Program-made: the position numbers and the translations under genes
Part shown: positions 4,192 through 21,955 of the stretch, piece after piece
Layout: every line of letters starts with the position of its first letter
Position numbering within the stretch: position 1 is the first letter of the stretch
Notes under the pieces: generated by a model
The model's database searches: none
The model's input: the letters and a program-made list of their open reading frames with translations, nothing else
What the model was told of the DNA's origin: nothing
From: a virus
Virus record (IMG/VR): IMGVR_UViG_3300009705_000138
Location: 1 to 22,568 of that record
Reading direction: 5' to 3' (one strand)
Length of the DNA stretch: 22,568 nucleotides

Positions 4192-4278
4192 ATGAGTGCA
4201 TTCGGCAGTAATGACCCTCATATTCAAGAATTAGCAAAAAAAGAAAAGTTAAAAGGAATAGCAAATGGCAACAGATAA
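4192..4278 (+). CDS. Possible 28-residue micro-protein after portal
   Basis: A 28-residue open frame, starting MSAFGSNDPHIQELAKK and ending in a basic tail, lies between portal and the first paralogous small gene, whose start it overlaps by 14 bases. AAAGGA at 4179-4184, seven bases upstream of the ATG, is a reasonable ribosome binding site. The 119-base gap is otherwise empty. I recognise no family, and the length alone gives little statistical support. It could instead act as a leader that couples translation to the next gene. Confidence 0.35.
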   Translation: MSAFGSNDPHIQELAKKEKLKGIANGNR

Positions 4279-4570
4279 GAAGTCCAAGCAATCACAATTA
4301 AAGTCCCTAGCCTCAAAGGGCCATGGAACAAATCGCTCAAAGCATATGAAGTATGGAGACTTTGCTGAGTCTGACGTACACGAGGGTCCAACTAGCTACA
4401 GAGGTCAATCTCTTCCAGACACTTCTAAGACTAATAAGAATACATTTGCAATGCATATAGCTCGCTCAGGTGGTGGCAAGAAGGCATTTATACTACAAGG
4501 AAAGCTATACAAATTTACCAATCAGGACCGCTCCAGTCGTAGTGTACTTCACTCCGAACAAACTCTTTAA
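4265..4570 (+). CDS. Small hypothetical protein, first of a paralogous pair
   Basis: A 101-residue basic protein of unknown function. Residues 27-87 closely resemble residues 18-77 of the next gene product: both contain KYGD, then ESDVHEGP, then YRG, and later a KxAFI segment followed by LxKxxN. The N-terminal 25 residues and the C-terminal tail differ. The start has AAAAGGA at 4251-4257, seven bases upstream. The stop is immediately followed by the ATG of the paralogue, with no gap. The place between portal and scaffold suggests a head-associated role (minor capsid, decoration or assembly), but that is positional inference only. Confidence 0.8.
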   Translation: MATDKKSKQSQLKSLASKGHGTNRSKHMKYGDFAESDVHEGPTSYRGQSLPDTSKTNKNTFAMHIARSGGGKKAFILQGKLYKFTNQDRSSRSVLHSEQTL

Positions 4571-4834
4571 ATGAGCAGAAAAGAAAAATTGAAGAATATA
4601 GTCAAGGGTTCTCAGGCTAAGTATTTAAAGTACGGGGACTATAAGGAAAGCGATGTCCATGAGGGTCCGGCAACATATCGTGGGTCAACCTATCAAGATG
4701 CTCCCGGAGCATCCCAAAGCGAATATGGAATAGCTGTGAAGCGTGGATATGGCAAGAATGCTTTTATTTTCCAAAAACAGCTATTTAAAATAAATAACCC
4801 CGGTGGCAGTAGCACTTCAGAAGTAAAAGTTTAG
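4571..4834 (+). CDS. Small hypothetical protein, second of a paralogous pair
   Basis: An 87-residue protein, paralogous to the gene just upstream through the shared KYGD, ESDVHEGP, YRG and KNAFIF-type segments (residues about 18-77). It has a shorter N-terminus and a Gly/Ser-rich C-terminus. The ATG directly abuts the upstream stop, so translation is probably coupled. No membrane segment or signal peptide is visible. The shared core, diverged ends and tandem order point to gene duplication followed by divergence. Function is unknown. A capsid accessory role is plausible from the neighbours, portal and scaffold. Confidence 0.8.
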   Translation: MSRKEKLKNIVKGSQAKYLKYGDYKESDVHEGPATYRGSTYQDAPGASQSEYGIAVKRGYGKNAFIFQKQLFKINNPGGSSTSEVKV

Positions 4835-4865
4835 TAAAAACAACAGACCAACCGAAGGAGTCTAA

Positions 4866-5720
4866 ATGAATAAGTCATATAATAATATTGAGGTAACGCC
4901 AGAAGAAATGGCTAGCCTCGAAGAAACTAATGAGACCACAGCGTCAGAAGCATTAGTTGATGAGTCCACCGAGGCTCAAACCGCAGAGACAGAAGAAACT
5001 TCTACTGAAGTAATTGAGACTGAATCAGCACCGCAAGGATTTGAGATAGATGGTGAAAGCTATGATGCCGACACTATCAAGGAATGGATGTCTGACTCTC
5101 AGAATAAATCTGAATGGTCAAAGACAAACACCCAGAAAGCTCAAGACCTAGCGAAGTGGAATAAGTTAGTTGAGAAAATTAACGAAGACGATGAATTTCG
5201 TTCACACATGAAGGACTACTTCTTTGATGATGAGTCTACGGCCAATAGCTTAGGCTTAAATGGCACCTTTCCGGATTTAGGGGATAACACCCCAGATGAG
5301 GAAGTGTCACCGCTTGAGGGCCGTTTAGAGGCTTTAGAAGAATATGAGTCAGAGCGTGTAATGGATGCTCGTGTTAATACTCTCGACTCGCAGTTGACCG
5401 AACTTGAGAAGGCACACCCCAGCATCCTTAGTGATGAGGGAACAAGAGACTTTCTTACCTTCACAGAGGATAACGCAGAGCGTTTCTCCGTGGATGGTAT
5501 GCCAAGTCTTGAGCTTGCATTCAAGGAATGGTCATACGATGCGATGAACGACCAGCTTACCCACTTTAAAAAGTTAGCTGAAAATAAGTCTCGTAACGAT
5601 GGTAAAATTGTAGGAATATCCGAGCTGGGTGCTAAGGAGAGTAAATCTCCTAAGAAGTACACTAGCTTCAAGGAAATGTCTATAAACGACCCTGACATTG
5701 CGAAATACTTTAATGAATAG
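4866..5720 (+). CDS. Capsid assembly scaffolding protein
   Basis: A 284-residue, very acidic protein placed directly before the major capsid gene, the usual place for an internal scaffold that guides procapsid assembly and then leaves. Residues 1-57 are a low-complexity Glu/Thr/Ser stretch. Residues 59-100 contain an IDGESYDADTIKEWM segment followed by a helix with Ser, Asn, Lys and Trp, a pattern I associate with scaffold-type proteins of podoviruses. Residues about 125-215 look helical, possibly coiled coil, and a basic stretch (about 250-265) lies near the C-terminus, where scaffolds commonly contact the coat. GAAGGAG at 4854-4860, five bases upstream, is a strong ribosome binding site. 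The call rests on position, composition and length. Confidence 0.82.
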   Translation: MNKSYNNIEVTPEEMASLEETNETTASEALVDESTEAQTAETEETSTEVIETESAPQGFEIDGESYDADTIKEWMSDSQNKSEWSKTNTQKAQDLAKWNKLVEKINEDDEFRSHMKDYFFDDESTANSLGLNGTFPDLGDNTPDEEVSPLEGRLEALEEYESERVMDARVNTLDSQLTELEKAHPSILSDEGTRDFLTFTEDNAERFSVDGMPSLELAFKEWSYDAMNDQLTHFKKLAENKSRNDGKIVGISELGAKESKSPKKYTSFKEMSINDPDIAKYFNE

Positions 5721-5721
5721 G

Positions 5722-5737
5722 CTCGGGATAACCCGAG
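5722..5737 (+). promoter_or_regulatory. Hairpin in the leader of the capsid gene
   Basis: A perfect six-base-pair stem (CTCGGG, loop ATAA, CCCGAG) starts one base after the scaffold stop and ends just before the capsid ribosome binding site AGAAAGGA (5738-5745). There is no T-run after it, so it is unlikely to terminate transcription. It could protect the 5' end of a capsid message, mark an RNase processing site, or keep the strong ribosome binding site exposed. The stem is seen directly; the role is inference. Confidence 0.55.
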
Positions 5738-5752
5738 AGAAAGGATAAAGAA

Positions 5753-6946
5753 ATGTCTTTATCTACAACTGTCTCCGCTTTAACGAGAGACAAATTCATG
5801 CCTATTCTAGTGGACAATATTTTTAACTCTAACGTCTTATGCTATAAGCTTTTAAAGAATAGTGAAAAAGTAGACGGTGGTGCAAAGATTGTAACTCCAA
5901 TAGAATATGCACAAAACGGGAACTCGGGTTGGGTTAAACCTAATGCGGGAACTCTTACAGGTGGTGGCGATTTAGCCAGTGCTATGACCGAAGTAGCTAA
6001 GAAAGCTGAATGGGATTGGGCTACAGCTTATAATTCCATTAATATCTCTGGTGAAGAAAAGTTTGTTAACGCAGGCTCATCACAGGTGTTATCAGTATTA
6101 AAGGCTCGAATGGCTAACGCTGAAAAAACTATCAAGGACCTTTTTGGTACTGGTATGTTTGCTTCAACAGTGGTCGCTGAGGGTTTGACTACCCTAAATG
6201 GTTCTGGTACATTCAGCAACTTGTCTGTAAATGCTGATGTTTTAGCTCACGATAACGGCAATGGTTTAATCCACGACTTTACTGGTAATACTGGTACCGC
6301 TCTACATATCCCAAAGGGTAAAGTGGTTGGTTCGATTGTTGGATATGACCGTAGCGTTGGTGGTATTGACACGGGTACTCCGGGTGTTACTGTCGATTTC
6401 TGGAACTCTAATCTCGGTACATTCGAGTGGGCTTCTGGTTTAGTTGGTGGTGATGGAGTTGCTCTTTTAATCAATGGTACCAATGATAATGGAACTTGTG
6501 ACTTTAATGCCTTTACTACAACCGTAAATGGTGTAGCTACTGGCGTAAGAGCTATGACTCAAATGTATGGTGCATGTACTGTTGATAGTGATTCTCCAGA
6601 CCTAATAGTAACAACTCAAACCATCTATGATGCTTATGAGTCCTCATTGCAGGGCAACAAGCGTTTTGATGGTGATGCTGTATTAGGTGATGCTGGTTTC
6701 CAAAGCTTACGCTTTAAGGGAGCTTCAGTAGTTGTAGACTCACATTGTCCTGCTGGACAAATGTATTTCTTAAATACTAGATACCTTGACTTTAAGGTTC
6801 ACAGTAAAAGAAACTTTGCTTTTGAAGATTTCAAAGCAATGGAGTCAATCGATGCTATGCAGGCTCGTATTTTCTGGATGGGGCAACTAGTTTGCACTAA
6901 TCCACGAATGCAGGGAATGTTAGTTGGTGGACCAACTGGTTACTAG
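5753..6946 (+). CDS. Major capsid protein
   Basis: A 397-residue protein in the canonical place after scaffold. It is the likely HK97-fold coat subunit that builds the icosahedral shell. It has an N-terminal helical arm (about 1-40), a region rich in Gly and hydrophobic residues (about 40-75), a helix with ISGEEKFVNAGSS followed by a long helix (about 100-135), a beta-rich insertion with many Gly, Asn and Thr (about 150-260), and a C-terminal part ending in MQGMLVGGPTGY. AGAAAGGA at 5738-5745, seven bases upstream, is a strong ribosome binding site, as expected for the most abundant virion protein, and a strong terminator follows the gene. I cannot place it in a particular coat family without a profile search. 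Confidence 0.87.
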   Translation: MSLSTTVSALTRDKFMPILVDNIFNSNVLCYKLLKNSEKVDGGAKIVTPIEYAQNGNSGWVKPNAGTLTGGGDLASAMTEVAKKAEWDWATAYNSINISGEEKFVNAGSSQVLSVLKARMANAEKTIKDLFGTGMFASTVVAEGLTTLNGSGTFSNLSVNADVLAHDNGNGLIHDFTGNTGTALHIPKGKVVGSIVGYDRSVGGIDTGTPGVTVDFWNSNLGTFEWASGLVGGDGVALLINGTNDNGTCDFNAFTTTVNGVATGVRAMTQMYGACTVDSDSPDLIVTTQTIYDAYESSLQGNKRFDGDAVLGDAGFQSLRFKGASVVVDSHCPAGQMYFLNTRYLDFKVHSKRNFAFEDFKAMESIDAMQARIFWMGQLVCTNPRMQGMLVGGPTGY

Positions 6947-10830: not shown

Positions 10831-11688
10831 ATGGAAATGTCGTGGGATAGACTTGCTGATAGATGTCAGTTATTTACAGATACAAACAAGGGTATGTTGA
10901 TTGAACTCTTGAAAGAAGCAGAAGAAGAATTAGCAAGGAAAGTTAACATATTTGAGCAACAGTGGAATTATTCAATACCATTTGATTCAAGAGGTGATAC
11001 AATACAATTACCAGATGGTGCTACAAGAGTAAGAAGCATTAGATATAATGGAAATTTGCTTACCCCTTTAGACGATTCTGAATTTGTTTATAACAGTGAT
11101 AATGGTATTGATGATGGAACTCCCTCAAGTTATTTTGTGAAAAAAGGTTACGGAGGGGTACTGGTTTATTTTGATAGGACACCTACTTCTGGAAAATTAT
11201 TGGTGGACTATTATGCAAGTAGACCAAACAATTTAGATAAGCAAGTCATTAACCACCATATGACTATAGCAAATGCATTTTGGTTGAATAATGGTTTAGG
11301 AAGTGCGTTGACTGGATTGAAAGGTAATTGGCGAGATGCTGACAATGGTAATTCTAATTATTTTACAACTCTTGCATATGTGGGATATACTGCAACATCA
11401 ACTGCTGGAGGTGCTGGCTATCATAAATACACATTTGTTGATACAGGAACAAGTGATACTCCAACATTAAATGCAATAGTTCAATTGTATAATTATGGCT
11501 CAATAGCCCCAATGATACCATTTCAATACCATAAGGATTTATGTGATTATGCTATATCAATAGCATTAGCAAAAGAGAATCCACAACTTTCAGATAAACA
11601 TCTAATGTTATGGGAGCGAAAATTAGAATCTATAAAAACAGAAGACATTGATAAAGACTTAATACATACAATGAGGAGGGAAATCTAA
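10831..11688 (+). CDS. Second adaptor-like tail protein
   Basis: A 285-residue protein that starts with a helical segment (WDRLADRCQLF, then LIELLKEAEEELARKV), continues with a beta-rich part (DTIQLPDGATRVRSIRYNG near 50-68, and GGVLVYFDRTPTSGKLLVDYY near 105-125), and ends with helices (about 230-285). This order resembles the head-to-tail adaptor encoded at 7006 and adaptors in general, but with an extra Gly/Thr/Ser-rich region at about 145-215. A tail adaptor or connector role is inferred from this pattern and the neighbours. The ATG at 10831 has GGAG at 10820-10823; ATG 10837 is an alternative. The stop overlaps the next start by one base with a strong GAGGAGG before it. Confidence 0.6.
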   Translation: MEMSWDRLADRCQLFTDTNKGMLIELLKEAEEELARKVNIFEQQWNYSIPFDSRGDTIQLPDGATRVRSIRYNGNLLTPLDDSEFVYNSDNGIDDGTPSSYFVKKGYGGVLVYFDRTPTSGKLLVDYYASRPNNLDKQVINHHMTIANAFWLNNGLGSALTGLKGNWRDADNGNSNYFTTLAYVGYTATSTAGGAGYHKYTFVDTGTSDTPTLNAIVQLYNYGSIAPMIPFQYHKDLCDYAISIALAKENPQLSDKHLMLWERKLESIKTEDIDKDLIHTMRREI

Positions 11689-12272
11689 TGTCTATACCAT
11701 TAATGGTTGCTGGTGGTTTATCAGCAATAAGCGGTATGTATCAATCAGAACAAACCAGAAAAAAACAGATTAAGGGATTAGAGAACCTTGCTGAAGTAAC
11801 ACCAGCAGAACGGGCTTATGTAAAGCGTAGGCGAGATATTATTAAGAATGGTGACCCTCTCATTAAAGAAGAGTTTAGTAAAAATATACAGGCTGTAAGA
11901 CAGCAAGGTCAATTCAATCGTCAACGTGGTACAGGTCAATCAATTCAACAGGGAATGGAAGGCAGTATTGTCGCACAAGAATTAAGAAGGCGTGTAGATA
12001 AAGACATTTTGAAATCTGTAGCAGAACAAGCCCGTGCAATGGCATTGGCAAACGCACAAGCCAAACGGCAAGCAGAAAATGAAATTGAAGGAATGAATTT
12101 ACAAACAGGCTCAAGAAGGCATCAGACATTAGCAAAAATTGCTGGAATTGGTGGTTATGATAAATCCGCAGGTGGAAATATGGTAAGAGCGGGAAGTATA
12201 GCACAAGGAGTTTTGGCTAATTCTTCCGAAGGTAAGAGTTATGAGGATGTTGATTTCGGGTGGGTGGTATAA
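11688..12272 (+). CDS. Internal virion (ejection) protein candidate
   Basis: A 194-residue protein that begins with a hydrophobic glycine-rich stretch (IPLMVAGGLSAISGMY, residues 3-18), followed by long Arg-, Gln- and Ala-rich helices (about 25-145) and a Gly-rich tail. This layout, small with a hydrophobic N-terminus and Gln/Ala-rich helices, is typical of podovirus internal virion proteins such as T7 gp14, and the gene sits in the matching place after the tail-tube genes. Such proteins are stored in the capsid and form a channel across the host envelope. The strong ribosome binding site GAGGAGG (11673-11679) and the one-base overlap with the preceding gene support the start. The evidence is composition and order, not a recognised domain. 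Confidence 0.6.
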   Translation: MSIPLMVAGGLSAISGMYQSEQTRKKQIKGLENLAEVTPAERAYVKRRRDIIKNGDPLIKEEFSKNIQAVRQQGQFNRQRGTGQSIQQGMEGSIVAQELRRRVDKDILKSVAEQARAMALANAQAKRQAENEIEGMNLQTGSRRHQTLAKIAGIGGYDKSAGGNMVRAGSIAQGVLANSSEGKSYEDVDFGWVV

Positions 12273-13253
12273 ATGGCATTAGATAAGATTATATATCGTC
12301 AAGGTAGGCGAAAAAATAAAAAGAACCCCGATGGGTATGAATATATGGTCAATGATAAGATGTTCTCATCGAAAGAAAAGGCTTATTCATATGGGCAGAA
12401 GTTAATAGATGACTCTAAAAAAGTTCGCACTTTTAATAAGAAAACAGGCACATATAAAACGTATAACAACCAGCAAGATTTAGATGACTTTAAAGCCAGT
12501 AAAGTTGCAGAAGCCGATAAAAAAATAGATGATGATATTGCTGAAAAGAATGCAAAAAGAAAAGGTGCAGTTCTTACCGATGACGGCTATACAAAAACAT
12601 TTGATACCAATAATGATTTTAAAAAATATTTAAGTAAAGAAGATAAAAAGAAGCAAAAGAAAATTACATCTGACCCAACCAAGGGTATGACCGTAGCTCA
12701 AAAGGCTCTCTATAGACAGGGTGGAACTGAGGAACAATTCGCAAAACTAGACTCTACTAACTTGGCCAAATACCTACCTGAATTTAAGACTGTGGAGATG
12801 AAAGCTGAGGAGACTGAGAAAAAGAAACCCAAGAAAGCCTCTGAAATTCAAAAAGAATTAACAAACCTTAAGCTAGAGCTTGCCATATCTAAAACCCAGA
12901 ACCCTGAGCTTACCGCTGGTATACAGGCTGAAATAAATGACCTAACAAGCTCCTTTCCTGTCTCGCCGAATATTGTCCCTGAAGAGATTAAGGATGACCC
13001 AGTTGGTCCAGACCTTCTTCATAAATGGTGGGGCAAACGGGCTGAAAAAGCTAAAATTCTAGGGGATACTCGCAGTAAATTTGAGCAACAAATTTTAAAC
13101 GATGAGACCTTTAAGTCCCAGATGCCAGAGAAGTATCAGGTGAATGGCTTAAATGCATATAAATACTGGGCCAGAGACCTAGCCGATACTGAAATAAGCG
13201 ACACTGAGCGTAGAGAAAAGAACGAAAAAGACCCTTTAAACTTAGGTATATAG
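12273..13253 (+). CDS. Lysine-rich internal virion protein candidate
   Basis: A 326-residue, very lysine-rich soluble protein with no membrane segment and no domain I recognise. Residues about 1-125 are low-complexity and basic, with helical stretches. Residues about 130-326 are more mixed, with helices (for example ELTNLKLELAIS) and a WWGKRAEKAK segment near 250-260. YRQG occurs twice (residues 8-11 and about 146-149). It starts immediately after the preceding stop, with only GGTGG as a weak ribosome binding site. Position between the candidate T7 gp14-like protein and the giant ejection-type protein suggests a gp15-like internal role. The first third is AT-rich like the tail genes, while the remainder has the richer GC of the giant gene, so a recombination joint may lie near 12650. 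Confidence 0.5.
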   Translation: MALDKIIYRQGRRKNKKNPDGYEYMVNDKMFSSKEKAYSYGQKLIDDSKKVRTFNKKTGTYKTYNNQQDLDDFKASKVAEADKKIDDDIAEKNAKRKGAVLTDDGYTKTFDTNNDFKKYLSKEDKKKQKKITSDPTKGMTVAQKALYRQGGTEEQFAKLDSTNLAKYLPEFKTVEMKAEETEKKKPKKASEIQKELTNLKLELAISKTQNPELTAGIQAEINDLTSSFPVSPNIVPEEIKDDPVGPDLLHKWWGKRAEKAKILGDTRSKFEQQILNDETFKSQMPEKYQVNGLNAYKYWARDLADTEISDTERREKNEKDPLNLGI

Positions 13254-13260
13254 GAGAATA

Positions 13261-16200
13261 ATGAACTACGAACAGTTTATTGCAGAAATTCGAGCTAAAT
13301 TCCCAGAGTACGACCATGCTGATGATAAAACATTAGCTGAGGCTATGTTCAAAAAGTATCCATACTACACTAAGGTATTGGATACCAACCAAGAGGAGGA
13401 AGTTTCTCCTTCCTCATTCCAACCCGTATCTACATTCCAAGATAATACCGCTGTATCGAGTGCTATGAGAGAACCAAGCATAGACATTGGTGATACAAAA
13501 CCAGTTGTTGTAAAACGAGGCACATCATCGGATGACTTTGTTGTTATTAAGTTAACAGGAGAGGACCCTACTGATGGAGGTTATCGTGTTGATGGCAATA
13601 ACTATTTTGATGACCTAATATATTCCCCCGATGAATTTGAGTCGTTTGGGAGTGAGAAGCTTAAAAAAAGAAGAGCCCTTGAGAATGATGGTTATAGGGT
13701 GTATGATATACAAAACAATTTACTTTTGAATACATACTGGGACTCTGTAGAAACTCCGGACAACGACCACGATGGAGCCTTTAAAATAAATACCAAGAGA
13801 GACTGGTGGGATGCCCTTACTGAAATTAAAGACAATCCTATAAAGGTGGTTCCATATCTTAGAAGCGGAAAAGAATGGTATGAGCTTGGAAATTTATTAG
13901 ATATATCCTTAAAAATTCAGAACAATGCTCCGGTTACGGAAAGTGAATTAACCGCAGTAAAAGACTACCTTGACGAGATGGAATTAGAGGGTCATCTGGA
14001 CAATTCCTTCGGGGCTACCGTTGTTGATATATTGACACAGCTACCGGCATTCGGTGCGGAGATGGCTACCGCTGGGTGGGTTACTGGACTTCTTAAAAAA
14101 GGGACCAAGGCTGGAATTAAGAAGTTTGCAACAAAAGAATTTAAAGACCTTGTTGATAAGAAGTTTAAGTCAGAGTTTGTAAAGGACAGTCAGGGAGTTA
14201 TACTTGAAGGTGTAGCTAAAAGAAAAGCCCTTAATATTGGGGCCACTGTAGCAACTCAAACAGTCATTGGAGCAGAAGCCTCAGGAATGATACAGGTAGG
14301 AGAACTTGAGCGTAGACTACAGGGTATAGAGCTTACAGATGATGAGAAGTTTATATTCCATAAAGAATTTGACAATAAAGACTCAGCCTCACTTCAAGCA
14401 AGGGCTGATACCTACCTAGAATATCTTGTTGAGCAAGCCGGAGCGGGGTTTAGGCCACTTGGTAAGTTCCTAAATAAAAAAACTATGGGATTAGTCCCAG
14501 ATAAATTAAAAGCCGATATGATGGAAAAGGCTTTTATAAAGGCTTTAGTCAAGGCTAATAAAGGTATCAGTCGCTCAGACTTTGTCAAGCAAATAGACTT
14601 CTATAAAAAACACGCCCAGTTTGGTGGAATGTTTGAAGAGTTTATGGAAGAGCGTCTTGGAGATGTTGGCCGTGATGCTATGTTTAATTTAGGAAAGTAT
14701 GGTATTGTAGAGGGACTTGATGACCCATCATTTGAATGGCAGGGTATGGATATGGGACAATATCTAGCAGAGCTTACTGCATTCTCAGTTCCCGGAGCTG
14801 TCGGTGGAGCCTCTAAGGCCAAGAGAGCCTATCAATACTCAAAGTCAGATACCCGTAAGCAGGTTGATGAAGCACGGGAGACTGGCACATGGGATAAAGA
14901 AACCCTCGACCTAGTTGAAGACCTTGTTATTAAGAACCCAAAGGCATTTGAGAATAGAGCTATCATTGAATTTGTCAATGAGTCTCGCAATATGTCTCGC
15001 TCATATCTAAGGGATGTTAAGGGCTGGTCAGAGGAAGAAATTGATGAGCTTTATTTAAAAGAAGGTTACGAGGGAGATGGTGAGGGACTAGGGGCCATGG
15101 GCCGTACGGTATACGATGAAATGTCGGATAAGGTTCTCGTTACTCTTTACAAGGGAGCAAACCAAGAAACAGTAATTGAAGAATTTTATGGAAATGCATT
15201 CAAGCATTTAAGCAAGAAAGACCAAGCCAGCTTTGGGGAATATTATAAACAGTCCGGAGATACTCGTTCTAAGCAGGAGTTTTTTGAACAAGAGGGGCTT
15301 AATTATTATTACGAAGAAAAGCTATACGCCAACACCCCGCTGGGGAATGTTTTTCAAAAACTTAAAAGTTTCTTTAAGGAAAATGTTCTTAAGAATGCAA
15401 GCCTTGATGACAAGACTAGACGAATGTGGGAACAGTCCGCTGAAACTAAATTTGGGTCCAGAAGTGCGAATGAAAAGCGTGGTGATAGCTATTCTATAAA
15501 AGAAACTAAAGATGTTCCTAATAAAATTAACAAACCTCTCCATAAAGAATTAAAGCAATATGCTGACGGTAAAAAACTTATTTATAAGGATACTAAATAT
15601 CCAAAAATAGATGAAACTAGAGCTATGGCTATTGCTGATGACTATGAGGCAATGGAAAATAATATAGATGCACCGGGAGTCCGAGAGGCCTATGGAGCTA
15701 TGGCTGTTGAGGTCAAGGAACAGTGGGAATTATTGACATCACTGGGTTATAAAATGGAGCCGTGGCTTGAGGATAGTCAGCCATATAAGTCATCTACGGA
15801 TATGGTGAATGATGTTCTGGAGAATAAGCACCTGTATTTCTTCCCAACGGAGGATGGTTTCGGTGAGGGAGAGGATACATCAGGACACCCCTTACTAGAA
15901 AACTCAGGGGTAGCTATTGAGGGGAAGGAACTCGTTTATAACGACCTATTTAGGGCCGTGCATGATATAATAGGGCACTCAAGAGGAAACCAATTTGGAC
16001 CACGAGGAGAGGAAACTGCATGGAGAGAGCACCTGCAATTATTTTCTGATACTGCAAAGAAGGCTGTAACAACAGAAACCCGTGGACAGAACTCATGGGT
16101 TAACTTCGGTGCACATTTAAGAAACAAGGACGGCAAATTATTAACCACAAAAGATAAGGGGTTTCTTTCCCCAGAGTCTCGTCCATATGCAGAACAAAAG

Positions 16201-19200
16201 ATTGGAATACTATCCGATGAGTCTCAGGCTCCCTACGATGAGTCATTTTCAATTAAGGAAATTCAAGCCGAAAACCTTAAGGTGGATGAGATAGCTAAAA
16301 AGTATGCATCCAAGGAACCTATTACTAAGGGAATGGGAAGAGCTGGAGTTGCTACCGACAGGGGCCTAAGTGAGGTCCTTAAGGTACTAACCGATGATGG
16401 CTTCGATATAAATGGAGCTCTTGAATGGTACAATGAGGCTGTATCCGAGGCGAAGGGAATTGGCTCTATTGAGGTCCCCTTAATTAAGTCTCATAAAAAT
16501 GGAGATGCCCTGTGGGATATCTTTATGGGGATGACAAGCCTAGGTACTAAGATACCTCCAAATTATGATAGTGGTATTAGTATTCTAAAAACCTATCTTG
16601 AAACCGGTAAAATAAATTATGTTCAGAATGATAAGGGTAGTACCCTAATTGAATATGAAAATTCCGAGGGTATTCCTAAGAAAATAAGGATGCCTATAAT
16701 AGCGGATATGTTCAAGAAATTCGAGGGACTTGTATCTGAGTTCGGTGAGGATGGGGCCATTGAATGGCTTATGACTCCTCATAGTGGTGTGGAAATTGCG
16801 GAGCTTAATGCTAAGTTAGCAGGGAAGAAGCCCGGGACCAAGAAGAAGCCATCTGGCATTACACTTGATGGTGAATACTATGGGGCCCGAATATTAGGGC
16901 CTAAAATAGGTCGCTATATTATGAACCTTCATGGTGTCCACGAGGAAGCCACCTACGATATATGGTGGACCAGAACATGGAATAGATGGATGGGTACCCC
17001 ATTTACAGAGAAGGGTGACCTAAAGAATGCACCATCTTGGGGAACAGAGTCTCAGGCTATGGATGAGGCTATGGAAAATATTAAGAGTAAGCTTAATGAA
17101 CTCACCGACAGAGAATGGAATGTCGCTGAGATTCAGGCGGTTCTATGGTACCACGAGAAACAACTATATGTTAGACATGGCCAAAAAGATGATGGTTTAA
17201 ACTATGGGAATGTCGCTAAATTAAGGGCAGAAAAGAAAGGTTATTATGAAGAATATGCCACACCCGTCAGTGATAAAAGCACTGGACAAATTGAAGAAGG
17301 ACGGAGCTCTGGACAGCAAGAAGCTGATGCCAATACTGAAGGCCGAACTAAAGAAACTCGAGAAGAAACTAAAGAAAAAAGTGGTCCGCTAAAAGGGGAG
17401 TCCTTTAGCCTTAAAAAGAAAACCTTAAAGTTTACACACTTCTCAGCTAAGAGTGACCTAAATGAACTCGACCCTACATACTTTGGTACAGGTAAGGCTA
17501 ACCGTGATGAAAAGAACGAAGGTCAACTGGACCGTGTATATGTATACCCTGAGGGAGCTAAGGCAGAGAGTATATTTAGAGATAGAGCTAAATACAACGA
17601 GTACACTGGTGAAACTACAGGAAGTTTCTACAACGTAGACACAGACACCGAAGGATACCTCAAGCAAGCAGAGATAACCTATGACTCCGGCTATAAGAAA
17701 ACCTCCCAAAGAAAGCTAGACAAAATTCTAAAAAAAGCCGGATACGATGGCTTCCATGGAGAGAAGTCCCTAGGAACGGATGCCTATACCCTATTTAAAA
17801 AAGTAAAGGTTAAACCCAAGAGTGAGGAAAACTTCTCATTAAAGGAAACAGTCCCCCTATGGGAGAGCAAGATACTCAAGGCCGTAAATAAACTCGGCTC
17901 GGATAAATTCGGAAAAAAATATGATATAAAAACCATACCCGTTAGAAGTGTAAAGAATTTCCTTCGCAACCAAGGTGTAAGTGAAGAGGAAATGAAGTGG
18001 GCTGGTATAGAGGTAATAGAGGCCATGCCATTCGGTGAGAAGAGTATTAGCGTTAGGGTCTTACAGAATCACATAAAGAACAACAACCTCCAAATGACCG
18101 AGACTGTTCGTGGTTATGACCCACAGAAGTCTGCGGATATAAAGGCAACCGCAACCGCCCTAAATAATTATATAGATGAAATGCAGGAGCAGGGGCTAAG
18201 TATAGGTGGCTTAGAAAATAGGGGAGATGTTAAACTTCAACAATTAGAAGAGGCTAGAGTTTTGGCTAGAGAAGCCGTTCAGAAAACAAAACATGATGCC
18301 TACAAGGTCCCCTCAAGAAGCCAAGAATTTGACACTGCCCCCAGAGAATATAAGGAAATGGAAATTACCATTCCCGATGATGCCACTACCGGTATATTCA
18401 AGGTAGAACATCACTTCCCAGATAATAATATTATCGCCTTTGTCCGCTTCGATACCCGTATGAAGGATGGAAAGAAGGTCCTATTTATTGAGGAGATTCA
18501 ATCCGACTGGCACCACAAGGGTTCCGCTGAGGGATACCAAGGATATCTTAAAACATTAACCGAAATTCCTGATGACTATAGGGTAGTTAAGGTGGATGAT
18601 ATAGATGGTGCAAGACATAGAGATGTGTCTGATGATAAGTTTGATGACAGATATGAGGATACTCGATTTGATGTGGCGGATGGCCATGGTGGATATATCC
18701 TAGAGTATAAGAGTGAAGAGACTGGTTCTAGGTCAGCAACCCTGTCTGGCCTAGAAACTGATGAATGGGTTACGGTCAGAACCCTAAGTGAAAGGGCTAT
18801 GCGTGAGGATACTATGGAGAGAGCTGAGAAGTTTTTCCTTAGAACAATGAATGACAAAAACCTAAACCTCGAAAGACGTAAGGTTCCAGATGCTCCATTC
18901 AAGGAGAGCTGGATGAGACTCGCTCAAAAGAGAATGCTCAGATATGCCGTTGATAATAAGTTCGACTCTATCGAGTGGGCAACAGGAGTAGAGTCCGCTG
19001 ACATGTATGATATAAGGAAAGAATTTGACTCATTGACGTATGAGAAATTTCCAAATGGGAGTATACTTATCCACGTTTACAAGGATGGGAGCGGTTCTTC
19101 AATCACAGACCTTGATACTACCAAGGATAAGCTACCCGGTTATTTTGGTAAAGACATTACAAACCAAATAATTCGAGGCGAAGGTGAAGCAATAGGCGGT

Positions 19201-21522
19201 AATGCCACTAGACTCGAAGCAAAGGATATGGTTATGGGCGGTGAGTTCCACAAGGAGTTCTACGATGTCCGAGTACCACAAGCATTTAAGAAGGTAATTA
19301 AACCATTCGGTGGCAAGGTTGTTAGTGGCGAGCATAGGAACTCCATTGAACTAACCAGTGAAATGAATGAAGCCTTCGCTAGACCTCAGGAGAGCTTCTC
19401 ACTGGTTGAGTACGGGTCCAAGCCTAAGCGTCCACCAATTAGAATTAAGCCTCTAAGCAGAAGGAAGTCTTCTTTCTATAGGAGAGCTATTATCCCTATA
19501 TCAACCAGACTTGGTAGGGTTCATCCAAAACTTAAATTCATGCTAAGAAAATTCGAGAAGGGGTTCCTACAGCAAATTCAGAAGGACTTAGAATCAGCAA
19601 AGGGTTTTATTGTTGGTGTTGATAAGTTAAAAGGTCAAGACCTCCATGATATGAACCTTGCACTGGCCAATGGTGACTTCGGTAAGGTAAATGAAATAGC
19701 GGAGCGTAACGGATTTAAGGACGGAGTTTCCTCAATGCAGGATGTTCTATATGACATTTATACCAGAGCTGAGGCAGGTGGGATAGATGTTGGTTTTATA
19801 GGTAACTACTTTCCTAGGCAGGTTAAGGACTTGTCTAGACTGTATGAATCGCTGGGAGTTGAGCAACAGGGAGCTATAGAAAAGGCCTACAGTGCCTACG
19901 CTAAAAAAACTGGGGTCAGAGTTGAAGACCTCTCATCTGAAGAAAAAACTATTCTCGTTAATAAGGTTCTTAATACTAATGCAACTGCAATAAAAACAAA
20001 GCCAAATAATATAAAGGCTCGTACTATAGATGCATTAACCCACTCCAATCTCGAGAATTATCACGACCCAGTATCCGCTCTTATTAACTACATTGAGAGT
20101 ATGAATGAGTCTATAGGGATGAAGGGTTTATTTGGGACTGATGATAAACTTGGAATTAAAGGTGCGTTTATAGATTCAGAAAAAAGAAATGAAGATATAG
20201 TGACAAGATATGTTGCGGGTCTGGTTGAGCAGTACAAACTAACACCTGAACAGCAGGAAGAGGTTATTGACGCATTGCGTGCAAGGTTTATCAGAGGGGC
20301 TAATCTTAAGGGTATAAAAACCGTTAAGGATGTCACCTATATGATGACCCTAGCCTCCCCAACATCCACCGTAACTCAGTTAGGGGATACCTTCTTTTCA
20401 TTGGGAATGGCTGGTATAATTCCCACAACAAAAGCAATGCTGAATGTTTTATCAGGAAAAGCCTCCACCAGCAGAAAGTCTCTTGGGTTAAATACCATTG
20501 CACAGGAATTTAAAACAACTGGCGGAACAGCCAAGGCCCTTAATACCCTTTTCAAATTAACTGGGTTCTCTCAGGCTGATGGTTTCTTTAAGGATGTTAT
20601 TCTAGAGGCTGAATTAATTAGAATGAAAACACTTCTAACCTCATCCGGAAAACTAGATATAGCAGGAAGAACACATGAGCTTGATACCTTTCTAGATACT
20701 ATATTTGGGGATGAAGCCTCCAGTGTCCGAGAGGATATTGTTGAGGGTAGAATGTCTGAAAATGTTGAGATGTTGTTATTCAGTACATTATCTGACTATC
20801 ATCCGGTAACTCTATCTGAAATGCCTGAGGCATACCTGACAAATAAGGGGGGGTACAACCGGTTATTTTATCAACTTAAAACATTTACAATGAAACAGCT
20901 TGATACCTTTAGAACTAAAGGGTTTGATAAGATGACCAGCGGTGACCCAGATGAAGCTATGAGAGGGATGTTAAATTTATTAAAAATGTCATTCTGGTTT
21001 GTAATGAGTGGATACTCATCCTCATGGATAAAGGATTGGATGATGGGAAGAGAGCATCACGCTGACGATACAATGGTTGACCAATTTTGGAAACTAGGTG
21101 GAGCTTCAAGGTATTTAGCTTACCAGTACAGACGATACGGACCAAAAACAACCGCTATTGAATTTTTCTTACCACCACAGGCTGGTATTACAGATAAGCT
21201 ATTTAGAGACTATCAGGACTTTACTAAGGAAGAAGGGAAAAAGGGTAAGCGTTCTGCAAGTGAATTGAGAACCGTTGCTAATATTCCATTGTTTGGTAAA
21301 TTTTATTACTGGCACGCTGGAGGTGGAGCAGGTGACTTTAAAATTAACCGTGAGCTTCGATACTATAGTGGGAAAGCAAAGGAGCGTCCACTTACAGCTA
21401 AGGAGCAGACTAAATATATGAATTATATAACAGAGGCCTACATTAAAGGCTTAATAAAAGGACCTGCAAGAAAAGAGCATTTCCTTAAGAAAATAGGGGT
21501 TCGTATTGAAAAAGACAATTAA
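13261..21522 (+). CDS. Giant polyvalent ejection-type protein with effector domains
   Basis: A 2753-residue protein in the place of T7 gp16, and about twice its length. It probably travels in the virion and enters the host with the DNA. The N-terminus (MNYEQFIAEIRAKFPEY, with a KYP a little later) matches the start often seen in podovirus ejection proteins. Residues about 235-275 and 460-535 hold hydrophobic, Gly/Ala-rich helices. Five copies of a [SN]-[FY]-S-[IL]-[KV] motif (residues 743, 995, 1381, 1524, 2045) delimit blocks. They are a block with H901-D-I-I-G-H906, E917 and RGQNSW (941-946); a block with WWTRTWNRW (1235-1243) and QAVLWYHEK (1292-1300); an ADP-ribosyltransferase-like block with THFS and LDPTYFGTG (1392-1411); a block with EIQSDW (1745-1750), VPDAPF (1875-1880) and EWATG (1905-1909); and an ejection-type C-terminus (2050-2753) with amphipathic or hydrophobic helices near 2361-2390 and 2571-2590. 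AGGAG at 13252-13256 precedes the ATG. The long frame and modular domains are seen directly; export and enzymatic activities are inferred. Confidence 0.9.
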   Translation: MNYEQFIAEIRAKFPEYDHADDKTLAEAMFKKYPYYTKVLDTNQEEEVSPSSFQPVSTFQDNTAVSSAMREPSIDIGDTKPVVVKRGTSSDDFVVIKLTGEDPTDGGYRVDGNNYFDDLIYSPDEFESFGSEKLKKRRALENDGYRVYDIQNNLLLNTYWDSVETPDNDHDGAFKINTKRDWWDALTEIKDNPIKVVPYLRSGKEWYELGNLLDISLKIQNNAPVTESELTAVKDYLDEMELEGHLDNSFGATVVDILTQLPAFGAEMATAGWVTGLLKKGTKAGIKKFATKEFKDLVDKKFKSEFVKDSQGVILEGVAKRKALNIGATVATQTVIGAEASGMIQVGELERRLQGIELTDDEKFIFHKEFDNKDSASLQARADTYLEYLVEQAGAGFRPLGKFLNKKTMGLVPDKLKADMMEKAFIKALVKANKGISRSDFVKQIDFYKKHAQFGGMFEEFMEERLGDVGRDAMFNLGKYGIVEGLDDPSFEWQGMDMGQYLAELTAFSVPGAVGGASKAKRAYQYSKSDTRKQVDEARETGTWDKETLDLVEDLVIKNPKAFENRAIIEFVNESRNMSRSYLRDVKGWSEEEIDELYLKEGYEGDGEGLGAMGRTVYDEMSDKVLVTLYKGANQETVIEEFYGNAFKHLSKKDQASFGEYYKQSGDTRSKQEFFEQEGLNYYYEEKLYANTPLGNVFQKLKSFFKENVLKNASLDDKTRRMWEQSAETKFGSRSANEKRGDSYSIKETKDVPNKINKPLHKELKQYADGKKLIYKDTKYPKIDETRAMAIADDYEAMENNIDAPGVREAYGAMAVEVKEQWELLTSLGYKMEPWLEDSQPYKSSTDMVNDVLENKHLYFFPTEDGFGEGEDTSGHPLLENSGVAIEGKELVYNDLFRAVHDIIGHSRGNQFGPRGEETAWREHLQLFSDTAKKAVTTETRGQNSWVNFGAHLRNKDGKLLTTKDKGFLSPESRPYAEQKIGILSDESQAPYDESFSIKEIQAENLKVDEIAKKYASKEPITKGMGRAGVATDRGLSEVLKVLTDDGFDINGALEWYNEAVSEAKGIGSIEVPLIKSHKNGDALWDIFMGMTSLGTKIPPNYDSGISILKTYLETGKINYVQNDKGSTLIEYENSEGIPKKIRMPIIADMFKKFEGLVSEFGEDGAIEWLMTPHSGVEIAELNAKLAGKKPGTKKKPSGITLDGEYYGARILGPKIGRYIMNLHGVHEEATYDIWWTRTWNRWMGTPFTEKGDLKNAPSWGTESQAMDEAMENIKSKLNELTDREWNVAEIQAVLWYHEKQLYVRHGQKDDGLNYGNVAKLRAEKKGYYEEYATPVSDKSTGQIEEGRSSGQQEADANTEGRTKETREETKEKSGPLKGESFSLKKKTLKFTHFSAKSDLNELDPTYFGTGKANRDEKNEGQLDRVYVYPEGAKAESIFRDRAKYNEYTGETTGSFYNVDTDTEGYLKQAEITYDSGYKKTSQRKLDKILKKAGYDGFHGEKSLGTDAYTLFKKVKVKPKSEENFSLKETVPLWESKILKAVNKLGSDKFGKKYDIKTIPVRSVKNFLRNQGVSEEEMKWAGIEVIEAMPFGEKSISVRVLQNHIKNNNLQMTETVRGYDPQKSADIKATATALNNYIDEMQEQGLSIGGLENRGDVKLQQLEEARVLAREAVQKTKHDAYKVPSRSQEFDTAPREYKEMEITIPDDATTGIFKVEHHFPDNNIIAFVRFDTRMKDGKKVLFIEEIQSDWHHKGSAEGYQGYLKTLTEIPDDYRVVKVDDIDGARHRDVSDDKFDDRYEDTRFDVADGHGGYILEYKSEETGSRSATLSGLETDEWVTVRTLSERAMREDTMERAEKFFLRTMNDKNLNLERRKVPDAPFKESWMRLAQKRMLRYAVDNKFDSIEWATGVESADMYDIRKEFDSLTYEKFPNGSILIHVYKDGSGSSITDLDTTKDKLPGYFGKDITNQIIRGEGEAIGGNATRLEAKDMVMGGEFHKEFYDVRVPQAFKKVIKPFGGKVVSGEHRNSIELTSEMNEAFARPQESFSLVEYGSKPKRPPIRIKPLSRRKSSFYRRAIIPISTRLGRVHPKLKFMLRKFEKGFLQQIQKDLESAKGFIVGVDKLKGQDLHDMNLALANGDFGKVNEIAERNGFKDGVSSMQDVLYDIYTRAEAGGIDVGFIGNYFPRQVKDLSRLYESLGVEQQGAIEKAYSAYAKKTGVRVEDLSSEEKTILVNKVLNTNATAIKTKPNNIKARTIDALTHSNLENYHDPVSALINYIESMNESIGMKGLFGTDDKLGIKGAFIDSEKRNEDIVTRYVAGLVEQYKLTPEQQEEVIDALRARFIRGANLKGIKTVKDVTYMMTLASPTSTVTQLGDTFFSLGMAGIIPTTKAMLNVLSGKASTSRKSLGLNTIAQEFKTTGGTAKALNTLFKLTGFSQADGFFKDVILEAELIRMKTLLTSSGKLDIAGRTHELDTFLDTIFGDEASSVREDIVEGRMSENVEMLLFSTLSDYHPVTLSEMPEAYLTNKGGYNRLFYQLKTFTMKQLDTFRTKGFDKMTSGDPDEAMRGMLNLLKMSFWFVMSGYSSSWIKDWMMGREHHADDTMVDQFWKLGGASRYLAYQYRRYGPKTTAIEFFLPPQAGITDKLFRDYQDFTKEEGKKGKRSASELRTVANIPLFGKFYYWHAGGGAGDFKINRELRYYSGKAKERPLTAKEQTKYMNYITEAYIKGLIKGPARKEHFLKKIGVRIEKDN
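15502..16242 (+). other. Domain with HDxxGH metal-binding-like motif (within giant gene)
   Basis: Residues about 748-994 of the giant protein. The core is LFRAVHDIIGHSRGNQFG (H901, H906), followed by GEETAW (E917, E918), REH (H924), and TETRGQNSWVNFG (938-950). Two His four residues apart plus a following Glu could bind a metal, in the manner of zincin peptidases or of two-His-one-carboxylate hydroxylases. I recall the same set of motifs in other phage polyvalent proteins, always without a proven activity. No function can be named from sequence alone. Confidence 0.5.
16258..17400 (+). other. Conserved phage domain with WWTRTWNRW and LWYHEK motifs (within giant gene)
   Basis: Residues about 1000-1380. 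A mostly helical module whose clear landmarks are Y1232-D-I-W-W-T-R-T-W-N-R-W (to 1243) with GTP after it, and VAEIQAVLWYHEKQLY (1288-1303). Similar pairs of landmarks occur in other phage polyvalent proteins in my recollection, but I know no activity for them. A polar, Lys/Glu/Gly-rich linker (about 1330-1380) leads to the next FSLK motif. Confidence 0.45.
17416..17829 (+). other. ADP-ribosyltransferase-like domain (within giant gene)
   Basis: Residues about 1386-1523, a compact block of some 138 residues between two FSLK motifs. It contains FTHFSAKSDLNELDP (1391-1405) and YFGTG (1407-1411), then a VYVYPEG strand, a Y.EYTGETTGSFY segment and a C-terminal GYDGFHGEKSLGTDAYTLF segment. Polyvalent phage proteins commonly carry ADP-ribosyltransferase-like domains with an HxS and GTG-type start and a late YDG segment; the resemblance is moderate. 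A clear catalytic Glu (ExE) pair is not obvious, so activity is uncertain. Confidence 0.4.
17845..19392 (+). other. Conserved phage module with EIQSDW and PDAPF motifs (within giant gene)
   Basis: Residues about 1529-2044. The landmarks are KKVLFIEEIQSDWHHKG (1738-1754), VPDAPFKESW (1875-1884) with the following arginine-rich helix, and DSIEWATG (1902-1909). I recognise this combination from many large phage polyvalent proteins, where its biochemical role is not established to my knowledge. The first 200 residues are a helical lead-in with a VSEEEMKWAGIE segment that usually accompanies it. Confidence 0.5.
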
Positions 21523-21955
21523 GCAACTTATAAAAGATGTACTAGAAATATTAGATGCTGGTGGTATAAAGTATAGTGATGATGCAGTGGAGTTAGTGTA
21601 TGAAACCGGCAATGCTGAAACAAATTACAGGCATCTAGAGCAAATAGGTGGCGGTCCCGGCATATCATTCTGGCAGATAGAGATTGCAACTCTGAATGAC
21701 AACTGGGATAACTACATTGTCTTTAGAAAGAAACTCATAGAGGTGCTATATAAGCTAGGATATTTAGAGAAGGACCCTATATTCAGTGCCCTTACAAATA
21801 TTGCGGTGGCTATTGCTATGTGCCGTATATACTACTGGAGACAACCCGGTTCAATACCTAAGACCATGTCAGGCAGAGCTGAATACTGGAAGAAACGCTA
21901 TAATACAGAGCAGGGAGCTGGTACAGTAAAGCACTACATGGAAGCTAACGAGTAG
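21506..21955 (+). CDS. Lysozyme-like fold candidate, possible cell-wall hydrolase
   Basis: A 149-residue protein of a family I have seen near phage lysis genes without a fixed name. The N-terminal half contains VYETGNAET (31-39, candidate catalytic E33), NYRHLEQIGGGPGISFWQIEIAT (40-62) and several Asn and Trp residues. The order Glu, Gly-rich loop, then G-x-x-WQIE-x-x-T recalls lysozyme-like transglycosylases, where a Glu precedes a GLxQ-type strand and a Thr. The C-terminal half has a hydrophobic helix (about 93-108, ALTNIAVAIAMCRIYYW) and a GAGT segment near the end. TTG 21506 is the start, with AGGGG upstream at 21494-21498, and the gene overlaps the giant gene by 17 bases. The three following genes look like lysis proteins. 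The enzymatic call is a hypothesis. Confidence 0.6.
   Translation: MKKTIKQLIKDVLEILDAGGIKYSDDAVELVYETGNAETNYRHLEQIGGGPGISFWQIEIATLNDNWDNYIVFRKKLIEVLYKLGYLEKDPIFSALTNIAVAIAMCRIYYWRQPGSIPKTMSGRAEYWKKRYNTEQGAGTVKHYMEANE

What the first reader, a model, noticed from the sequence alone, without database searches (positions are those of the whole stretch)
15487..19407. Five FSLK-type motifs mark the domain boundaries of a 2753-residue virion protein
SYSIK, SFSIK, SFSLK, NFSLK and SFSLV lie at residues 743, 995, 1381, 1524 and 2045, each between blocks with unrelated landmark motifs. The conserved short core in otherwise low-complexity acidic linkers suggests cleavage by a protease after entry or during assembly, a docking peptide for packaging effectors into the head, or a recombination joint used to add domains. 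If they are processing sites, the gene encodes a polyprotein that releases several effectors into the host.
Basis: partly seen in the sequence, partly recalled or inferred. Interest (0 to 1): 0.75.

Follow-up and report, generated by a model that had tools for sequence, protein, structure and literature searches.

The report
Border peptides in phage cargo protein
A giant phage protein that is probably injected into bacteria is built from swappable domains separated by copies of one short peptide; related phages use a different peptide at the same borders, so something in each phage probably reads or cuts that peptide.

Summary
Five [SN][FY]S[IL][KV] copies lie at the stated residues of a 2753-aa ORF. 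Against a related phage (L003, "Q"), the four edges of the two high-identity shared modules lie 0-2 residues from a copy.

Q has no FSLK. It carries ETMQA/ETFQA at those borders. Further relatives carry S[FY]QL, ESFQL and S[FY]R[LI], each uniform within its own protein. Other polyvalent proteins carry F[ML]PE, SFSPK, QF[RK]P, LYSK and others. In ten proteins 0 of 46 joints lie inside a Pfam hit, and 6 of 18 hits are flanked on both sides (0.08 expected). A stricter test finds recurrence in only 7 of 56 proteins: a subset.

P's copies differ in codons, so the amino acids seem to be what is kept. One P module carries an apparent remnant of a Q-type joint.

Best reading: lineage-specific border peptides separating cargo modules of a probably ejected polyvalent protein, most likely protease sites. 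No protease was identified. Docking and recombination remain live. "Acidic linkers" is wrong.

The parts
13261..21522 (+). Large polyvalent-type protein P, 2753 aa, six segments separated by five joints
   Evidence: No Pfam or NCBIfam family at a meaningful score in P itself; phrog_3170 at residues 792-950
13261..15486 (+). N-terminal part, residues 1-742, free of joints; residues 527-767 have weak kin in L003, and the part aligns with L013, L014 and L099
   Evidence: no Pfam or PHROG hit
15487..15501 (+). Joint 1, SYSIK (743-747)
   Evidence: the same border carries ETMQA in L003, SYQL in L013/L014 and ESFQL in L099
15502..16242 (+). Mobile module 1 (homology core residues 774-986), phrog_3170-like, found in many other phage proteins in other settings
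   Evidence: modelled with block pLDDT mostly 86-98; no PDB fold at E <= 0.001
16243..16257 (+). Joint 2, SFSIK (995-999)
   Evidence: module breakpoint with L003 at residue 997
16258..16272 (+). Apparent remnant of a Q-type joint: EIQAE in P where L003 has ETMQAE, directly behind P's own joint 2
   Evidence: Codon alignment; the reading as a remnant is inference
16258..17400 (+). Module A (residues 1000-1380), 89% identical to L003 residues 914-1300
17401..17415 (+). Joint 3, SFSLK (1381-1385)
   Evidence: breakpoint at residue 1382
17416..17829 (+). Small module (residues 1386-1523), absent between modules A and B of L003; kin in L045 lies between that protein's own joints FLPE 1777 and FMPE 1970
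   Evidence: 29% identity over 132 columns, E 1e-7 against a three-sequence set
17830..17844 (+). Joint 4, NFSLK (1524-1528)
   Evidence: breakpoint at residue 1529
17845..19392 (+). Module B (residues 1529-2044), 71% identical to L003 in the BLAST segment, about 28% to L013/L014
19393..19407 (+). Joint 5, SFSLV (2045-2049)
   Evidence: L003 has ETFQA here, L013/L014 SFQLK, L099 ESFQLV, L104 ESYRLE, L108 RFSMK before the same C-terminal domain
19408..21519 (+). C-terminal domain (residues 2050-2753), free of joints, shared with L013, L014, L099, L104-L106, L108 and others; L003 has an LPD38 domain in its C-terminal part instead

Best explanation
P is a polyvalent-type protein, probably ejected with the DNA, with a joint-free N-terminal part, a string of exchangeable cargo modules, and a joint-free C-terminal domain. 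A short peptide sits at each border between parts. Each phage lineage uses its own version ([ST]-[FYM]-x-[LIA] in P's relatives, aromatic-x-Pro in several others), and the version is the same at all borders found in one protein. The most likely reason is a lineage-specific reader, most likely a protease that cuts at the borders and frees the modules during assembly or after ejection. Shown by sequence: border position, uniformity within a protein, difference between relatives, and, in P, retention of the amino acids while codons vary. Inferred: ejection, a reader, cleavage.
For: Edges of the two modules shared with L003 lie 0-2 residues from joints. Joints found in five related proteins (22 joints, chosen by me) are alike within a protein (mean 4.16 of 6 identities) and unlike between proteins (2.27; orthologous borders 2.16); permutation p 5e-5; the residue after the aromatic/Met is S, Q, Q, Q or R, uniform in each of the five proteins (0 of 200,000 permutations). 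In ten proteins 0 of 46 joints fall inside one of 18 Pfam hits (4.1 expected, p 0.013), and 6 of 18 hits are flanked within 45 residues on both sides (0.08 expected; none of 20,000 random placements). L099 ART-PolyVal 1025-1213 lies between joints 1006 and 1218; L104 ART 915-1081 between 897 and 1089. In P the five copies share codons no more than chance (8 of 32, 10.5 expected). Across the 17 joint-bearing proteins tabulated the first joint is at 27-69% and the last at 64-86% of the length: there is no joint at either end, as cut sites between units would be, whereas a tag on every unit would leave one at an end. P module A keeps an apparent damaged Q-type joint next to P's own joint.
Against: No protease was identified: no HExxH in P or in Q, L013, L014, L099, L104, L106, L108; no S78 or ClpP match in seven records, all of unknown completeness and possibly fragments. 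HExxH occurs in 9 of 10 joint-bearing proteins outside P's family, always before the first joint, but also in 24 of 42 other module-1 proteins, so it does not discriminate well. The joint versions share no residue that fits one known protease. Recurrence is detectable in a minority: 7 of 56 at the module-1 border (median percentile 0.48) and 14 of 106 large ORFs de novo. Q's joint is not significant de novo in the reduced-alphabet scan (shuffle fraction 0.55), nor are L013 (0.22) and L104 (0.11, 0.049). By the cited review the N4 virion RNA polymerase is packaged unprocessed.
Confidence: 0.42

Rival explanations
1. Recombination joint: the peptide is a by-product of how modules are added. A short DNA sequence repeated at borders serves as homology for joining new modules in frame, and the peptide is tolerated or only weakly selected.
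For: In L099 the 15 bases for ESFQL recur four times with one silent change, and in L058 24 bases recur three times with one silent change, with diverged sequence on both sides. Over 12 proteins identical codons exceed chance (171 against 135 expected, sd 9.6), driven by L099, L058, L016 and L132. Inserted modules lie between two copies where the other protein has one (P/L003, L049/L035, L046/L050).
Against: P's copies share codons no more than chance and are 50% identical in bases, with Ser as both AGC and TCN. Also as chance in L003, L013, L104, L045, L064 and L041. P and L003 exchanged or inherited modules although their joints differ, which shared joint DNA does not explain.
Confidence: 0.25
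2. Docking peptides: each joint binds a partner (the C-terminal domain, a neighbouring core protein or an ejection channel) and ties the long flexible protein into the head or guides its unfolding and exit; no cleavage.
For: The kind of joint goes with the kind of C-terminal part: aromatic-x-Pro triplets are in excess in 13 proteins with a DUF7178-like C-terminal part (97 against 49.8 expected) compared with 79 others (334 against 293.6; p 6e-6), and P's C-terminal family carries aromatic-x-Leu/Ile/Met. The protein upstream (12273-13253) gives no blastn match between the window and L003.
Against: One binding site would suffice for packaging; a site at each module border but none in the long end parts fits separation better. 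The triplet counts include conserved triplets inside module 1 and duplicated segments, so the correlation is only a lead.
Confidence: 0.2
3. Coincidence or common descent: short similar linkers inherited from duplicated module ends, without function.
For: Within P alone the motif is only borderline; most proteins with module 1 show no recurrent border peptide; some recurrences are the end of a duplicated domain, as in L007 and partly L088.
Against: Breakpoint coincidence with L003, whose four joints differ in concert, and joints around unrelated modules with unlike flanks.
Confidence: 0.08

Closest known systems
Polyvalent proteins of phages and conjugative elements (Iyer et al. 2017, PMC5512222; abstract, passages and the section on peptidases seen)
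   Same: Very large phage protein of exchangeable domains in the late virion gene cluster; relatives of P carry ART-PolyVal above the Pfam cut-off, and L003 and L132 carry LPD38. The paper proposes that embedded zincin-like peptidases release the domains.
   Different: P itself matches no Pfam polyvalent family and has no HExxH. In the passages I saw no border peptide is described; a text search of the paper found no 'linker' and no 'FSL'.
Prohead-protease substrates of giant Salmonella phage SPN3US (PMC10052503; passages seen)
   Same: Head proteins, among them probable ejection proteins, cut at a short recurring motif by a phage protease, with several sites in one protein.
   Different: There the motif is A-x-E and all but one of the identified cleavages remove N-terminal propeptides; P's joints contain no A-x-E, and no S78 protease was found in seven partial records.
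Viral polyproteins with protease sites between mature proteins (general knowledge; the comparison is also made in PMC5512222)
   Same: One site per border, none at the ends, and site sequence differing between lineages as expected of a matched protease.
   Different: No protease identified, no cleavage data, and modules swap between phages far more freely.
T7 internal core proteins gp14-gp15-gp16 (general knowledge)
   Same: Gene order terminase, portal, MCP, ..., gp14-like, a further protein, then one very large protein.
   Different: Only a sub-threshold T7_gp14 match in the neighbour 11688-12272 (E 0.03, 14.7 bits, cut-off 27); P shows no sequence match to gp16.

Membership tests
Phage polyvalent proteins | Several domains of unlike kind in one very long polypeptide | tested here: met
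   Modules of P recur separately in other proteins
Phage polyvalent proteins | Known polyvalent-associated domain (ART-PolyVal, LPD38 and the like) in P itself | tested here: not met
   No such Pfam hit in P or its pieces. Met in relatives that share its C-terminal domain: ART-PolyVal in L099 (83 bits) and L104 (63 bits), cut-off 31.2; L108 at 26.8 is below it. LPD38 in L003. P is therefore called polyvalent-type by kinship
Phage polyvalent proteins | Injected with the DNA early in infection | not testable with these tools
   Only gene order and a weak gp14-like neighbour
Self-processing polyvalent protein with zincin peptidase | HExxH peptidase domain in the same protein | tested here: not met
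   No HExxH in P. A conserved TV[IV]EExYG segment before joint 1 looked like a decayed zincin to me, but profile comparison with HExxH regions of eight other proteins gave probability 0.2%
Prohead-protease substrate (T4/SPN3US type) | Cognate S78-type protease in the genome | tested here: inconclusive
   0 of 7 records match PF04586; all may be fragments. Other prohead protease families were not searched
Prohead-protease substrate (T4/SPN3US type) | A-x-E cleavage motif at the sites | tested here: not met
   P joints SYSIK, SFSIK, SFSLK, NFSLK, SFSLV
Polyprotein with matched protease sites | Cleavage at the border peptides | not testable with these tools
   Needs mass spectrometry or expression

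The most novel reading that the evidence does not exclude
Part of the phage polyvalent proteins are true polyproteins with a lineage-private border code. Each lineage has its own short peptide, read by its own protease or receptor; a module taken from another lineage is used only once it stands between the recipient's joints, and the donor's joint then decays, as P module A (SFSIK directly followed by the damaged EIQAE) suggests. Joint, C-terminal part and reader would change together.
Probability: 0.3. Interest if true: 0.88.

Novelty: new variant of a known kind. Interest (0 to 1): 0.7.

Why it matters
Whether polyvalent proteins are cut into separate effectors, where, and by what, is open: the 2017 review proposes processing, but the cited cases include both a cut and an uncut protein. 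Border peptides that can be recognised in the sequence turn this into exact predictions of new protein ends, give domain borders in proteins without any database hit, and point to a reader that should vary together with the peptide. If the peptides are cut sites, they would give a set of phage protease specificities; if they are joining sites, they would show how phages add effector genes in frame.

Tried and rejected
De novo motif finding in one protein. A BLOSUM sum-of-similarity scan (20 shuffles) did not raise the motif above chance in P or Q; a reduced-alphabet scan gave a shuffle fraction of 0.05 for P, 0.55 for Q, 0.22 for L013, 0 of 200 for L099 and 0.11 for L104. The survey of 106 ORFs of at least 1000 aa (60 shuffles each) gave 14 at 0.05 or below, where about 5 are expected; not all 14 are joints (for example VYHGT in L007 belongs to a duplicated ART-like domain).

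Universal border motif. Rejected: at the C-terminal border of module 1 only 7 of 56 proteins have a peptide that recurs at percentile 0.05 or below (2.8 expected), median 0.48, KS p 0.085, Fisher p 0.02. One of the seven, L052, is not an obvious joint.

Decayed zincin peptidase at P 527-735. I suspected it from memory of the fold; profile comparison gave no support and the AlphaFold model of P516-762 has mean pLDDT 51. Dropped.

Fold and structure searches. Foldseek against PDB with the P690-1560 model: no match at E 0.001 or below. Profile searches of solved structures for module 1, P516-762 and the C-terminal domain gave only de novo helical bundles and chance hits.

Genomes. The C-terminal domain was not found in bacterial genome contigs; module 1 was found at 21 loci. 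Viral scans with the whole L099 and L104 proteins returned only those loci again. All 8 viral-contig scans are used.

Biases in my own tests. Patterns were written after seeing the copies, so its expected counts are not tests. In one search the L045 pattern had been widened from FMPE to F[ML]PE after I saw FLPE behind the ART domain; without it 5 rather than 6 domains are flanked on both sides. The L040 kinase hit is below its Pfam cut-off; it is not one of the six. From L040 I left out FSPA 621 and FSPK 1062; from L132 the VFS, IYS and VMS matches; from L016 the two FMP variants (used). One search holds ten proteins; L041 has no Pfam hit, L038 and L108 were left out because their joints are few or mixed, and L013, L014, L031, L047 and L064 were not scanned with Pfam. 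In one search (module 1 in 11 proteins: 0 of 55 joints inside, 9 with a joint within 45 residues after it, 7 within 60 before it, 5 both) the limits were set after seeing the distances, and L018 and L047 joints were found by looking behind this module. In one search L014 was left out as a near copy of L013.

Literature. No paper on such border peptides was found (listings only); this covers only the open-licence library.

Full report
What is there. The window is an IMG/VR virus record of 22,568 bases with terminase large subunit, portal and major head protein (PHROGs), an SU10-type adaptor (Pfam), a weak T7 gp14-like protein, a 326-aa protein of no family, and then the 2753-aa ORF P at 13261-21522. 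The order resembles T7, where the corresponding large protein is ejected; that is inference. P has no Pfam or NCBIfam assignment and one PHROG of unknown function at residues 792-950.

The motif. Judged on P alone they are borderline. What makes them convincing is comparison.

The related phage. L003 (L002 is the same protein cut short) is alike in several genes: blastn identity is 65-91% in nine stretches, for example 79% over window 4610-6153. Its large protein Q shares two high-identity modules with P: P997-1382 with Q914-1300 at 89%, and P1529-2046 with Q1301-1825 at 71%; a third, weak match (25%) covers P527-767. The four edges of the two strong matches lie 2, 1, 0 and 1 residues from a joint; one random point has about a 2.5% chance of lying that near (within 4 residues). 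Q has no FSLK-type copy. It has ETMQA at 754, 917 and 1298 and ETFQA at 1823. The module between joints 3 and 4 of P is absent there, and a single ETMQA joins modules A and B in Q.

A family of private joints. Scans with the module B and C-terminal profiles brought further relatives. L013 and L014 have S[FY]QL or S[FY]QA four times; L099 has ESFQL four times; L104 has S[FY]R[LI] five times. The same homologous border, after the N-terminal part, carries SYSIK in P, ETMQA in Q, SYQL in L013/L014 and ESFQL in L099, with ESFRI near it in L104. The border before the C-terminal domain carries SFSLV in P, SFQLK in L013/L014, ESFQLV in L099, ESYRLE in L104 and RFSMK in L108. Over 22 joints of five proteins, identity is 4.16 of 6 within and 2.27 between proteins, and 2.16 between orthologous borders; the residue after the aromatic or Met is uniform within each protein. 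Joints were partly recognised by their likeness to others in the same protein, which favours this result; the borders named above were located by homology.

Beyond the family. Eighty loci with module 1, of which 57 proteins are distinct by module, and 21 loci from bacterial genomes were examined. Recurrent border peptides were recognised in L016 (SFSPK and FMP variants), L018 (QF[RK]P), L031 (FEP), L034 (DDTLxAR), L040 ([FY]SP[SG]), L041 (NLKP), L045 (F[ML]PE), L047 (Q[FY]xP), L058 (RRMPE), L064 (PMA[AG]P) and L132 (L[FY]S[KR]). The strict border test finds 7 of 56 proteins at percentile 0.05 or below, so most module-1 proteins show nothing detectable.

Joints and known domains. Pfam hits were compared with joints in ten proteins: 0 of 46 joints lie inside one of 18 hits (4.1 expected, p 0.013; 0.0024 when placement is limited to the joint-bearing span); 14 of 36 domain sides have a joint within 45 residues (2.6 expected); 6 of 18 domains have one on both sides (0.08 expected). 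The six are ART-PolyVal in L099, L104, L058, L045 and L132 and a GNAT domain in L016. Module 1 itself, in 11 proteins, contains 0 joints (4.3 expected) and is flanked on both sides in 5. P's small module 1386-1523 has kin in L045 that lies between the L045 joints FLPE 1777 and FMPE 1970. Limits and widened patterns are told under Tried and rejected.

Structure. In the AlphaFold model of P690-1560 (mean pLDDT 62) module 1 is well predicted, joint 1 lies in the low segment just before it and joint 2 starts the low segment just after it; joints 3 and 4 lie in long low segments. Since 41% of the model is low, this is support, not proof. P516-762 gave a poor model in which joint 1 lies in the low tail. 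Joint 5 was not modelled.

DNA or protein level. In P the copies share codons no more than chance (8 of 32 against 10.5), and serine appears as AGC and TCN: the amino acids are kept, not the bases. In L099 and L058 the bases are nearly identical with sharp edges, and over 12 proteins identical codons exceed chance (171 against 135, sd 9.6). So joints may arise by copying of a short DNA piece and be kept later by selection on the peptide.

A remnant. Directly behind P's joint SFSIK comes EIQAE where Q has its joint ETMQAE (GAA ATT CAA GCC GAA against GAA ACC ATG CAG GCC GAG). Behind NFSLK comes ETV where Q has ETMQAI; this second case is weaker. The simplest reading is that modules A and B once stood behind Q-type joints and that P's own joint took over. 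The opposite direction is less simple, because all four Q joints are of one type.

How it may work. A peptide private to each lineage, at the borders, with none in the joint-free end parts (first joint at 27-69% and last at 64-86% of the length in 17 proteins), kept at the protein level in P, suggests a reader of matched specificity. I favour a protease that frees the modules, at 0.42. Against it: no peptidase motif in P or its near family, no S78 or ClpP in seven partial records, and no common cleavage residue. HExxH precedes the first joint in 9 of 10 other joint-bearing proteins but occurs in 24 of 42 other module-1 proteins too. Docking is favoured by the link between joint class and C-terminal part (97 against 49.8 expected aromatic-x-Pro triplets with a DUF7178-like end, 334 against 293.6 in others, p 6e-6), which is only a lead. 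A recombination joint is favoured by L099 and L058.

Known or new. Polyvalent proteins are known (PMC5512222; abstract, passages and one section seen), and their processing has been proposed through embedded zincin peptidases. Giant-phage head proteins are cut at a recurring A-x-E motif (PMC10052503; passages). I found no account of lineage-private border peptides in searches. I file P as a polyvalent-type protein by kinship, and the joints as a new variant of a known kind.

Noticed in passing
window 4265-4834: Two adjacent small ORFs (101 and 87 aa) look like tandem copies of one gene (xKYGDxxESDVHEGPxxYRG) between portal and scaffold-like gene; judged by eye.
   Followed up: no
window 21506-21955: The next ORF (149 aa, TTG start) overlaps the end of P by 17 bases, matches phrog_3108 (E 1.5e-30, unknown function), and has a counterpart behind the large protein in L003 (blastn 77%) and L099 (phrog_3108, E 3.9e-23).
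   Followed up: partly
window residues P774-986 (15580-16218): Module 1 (NDLFRAVHDxxGH...ETRGQNSW) is a widespread mobile domain of unknown function: 203 phage records match P, 187 of them Mycobacterium phages, and the listed Mycobacterium hits fall in it; its confident model has no PDB match.
   Followed up: partly
L067 and L077: A longer recurrent peptide, [FW]DxxxHPRxxxGxF, stands at borders of these two proteins; another type of joint or a small domain.
   Followed up: no
L046 1505-1689 against L050: Insertion of a module between two DIRMQA copies where the close relative (95% and 91% in the flanking segments) has a single DIKMQP.
   Followed up: partly
OQ594354.1, OL906435.1, PP438419.1: Three phage records under three cyanobacterial hosts have the same length (65,014 bases) and the same match; possibly one genome deposited under three names.
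   Followed up: no
PQ492659.1 (L009): Recorded as an inovirus, yet 39 kb long with a large protein 66% identical over 1310 residues to that of a record titled Podoviridae; the taxonomy label looks wrong.
   Followed up: no
L124 (Halomonas sp. NO4, genome contig): Large protein with two RFSLR copies, one at the end of a segment reading ..DIGDPDIRFSLRRP; a named bacterial host strain in which joints might be tested.
   Followed up: no
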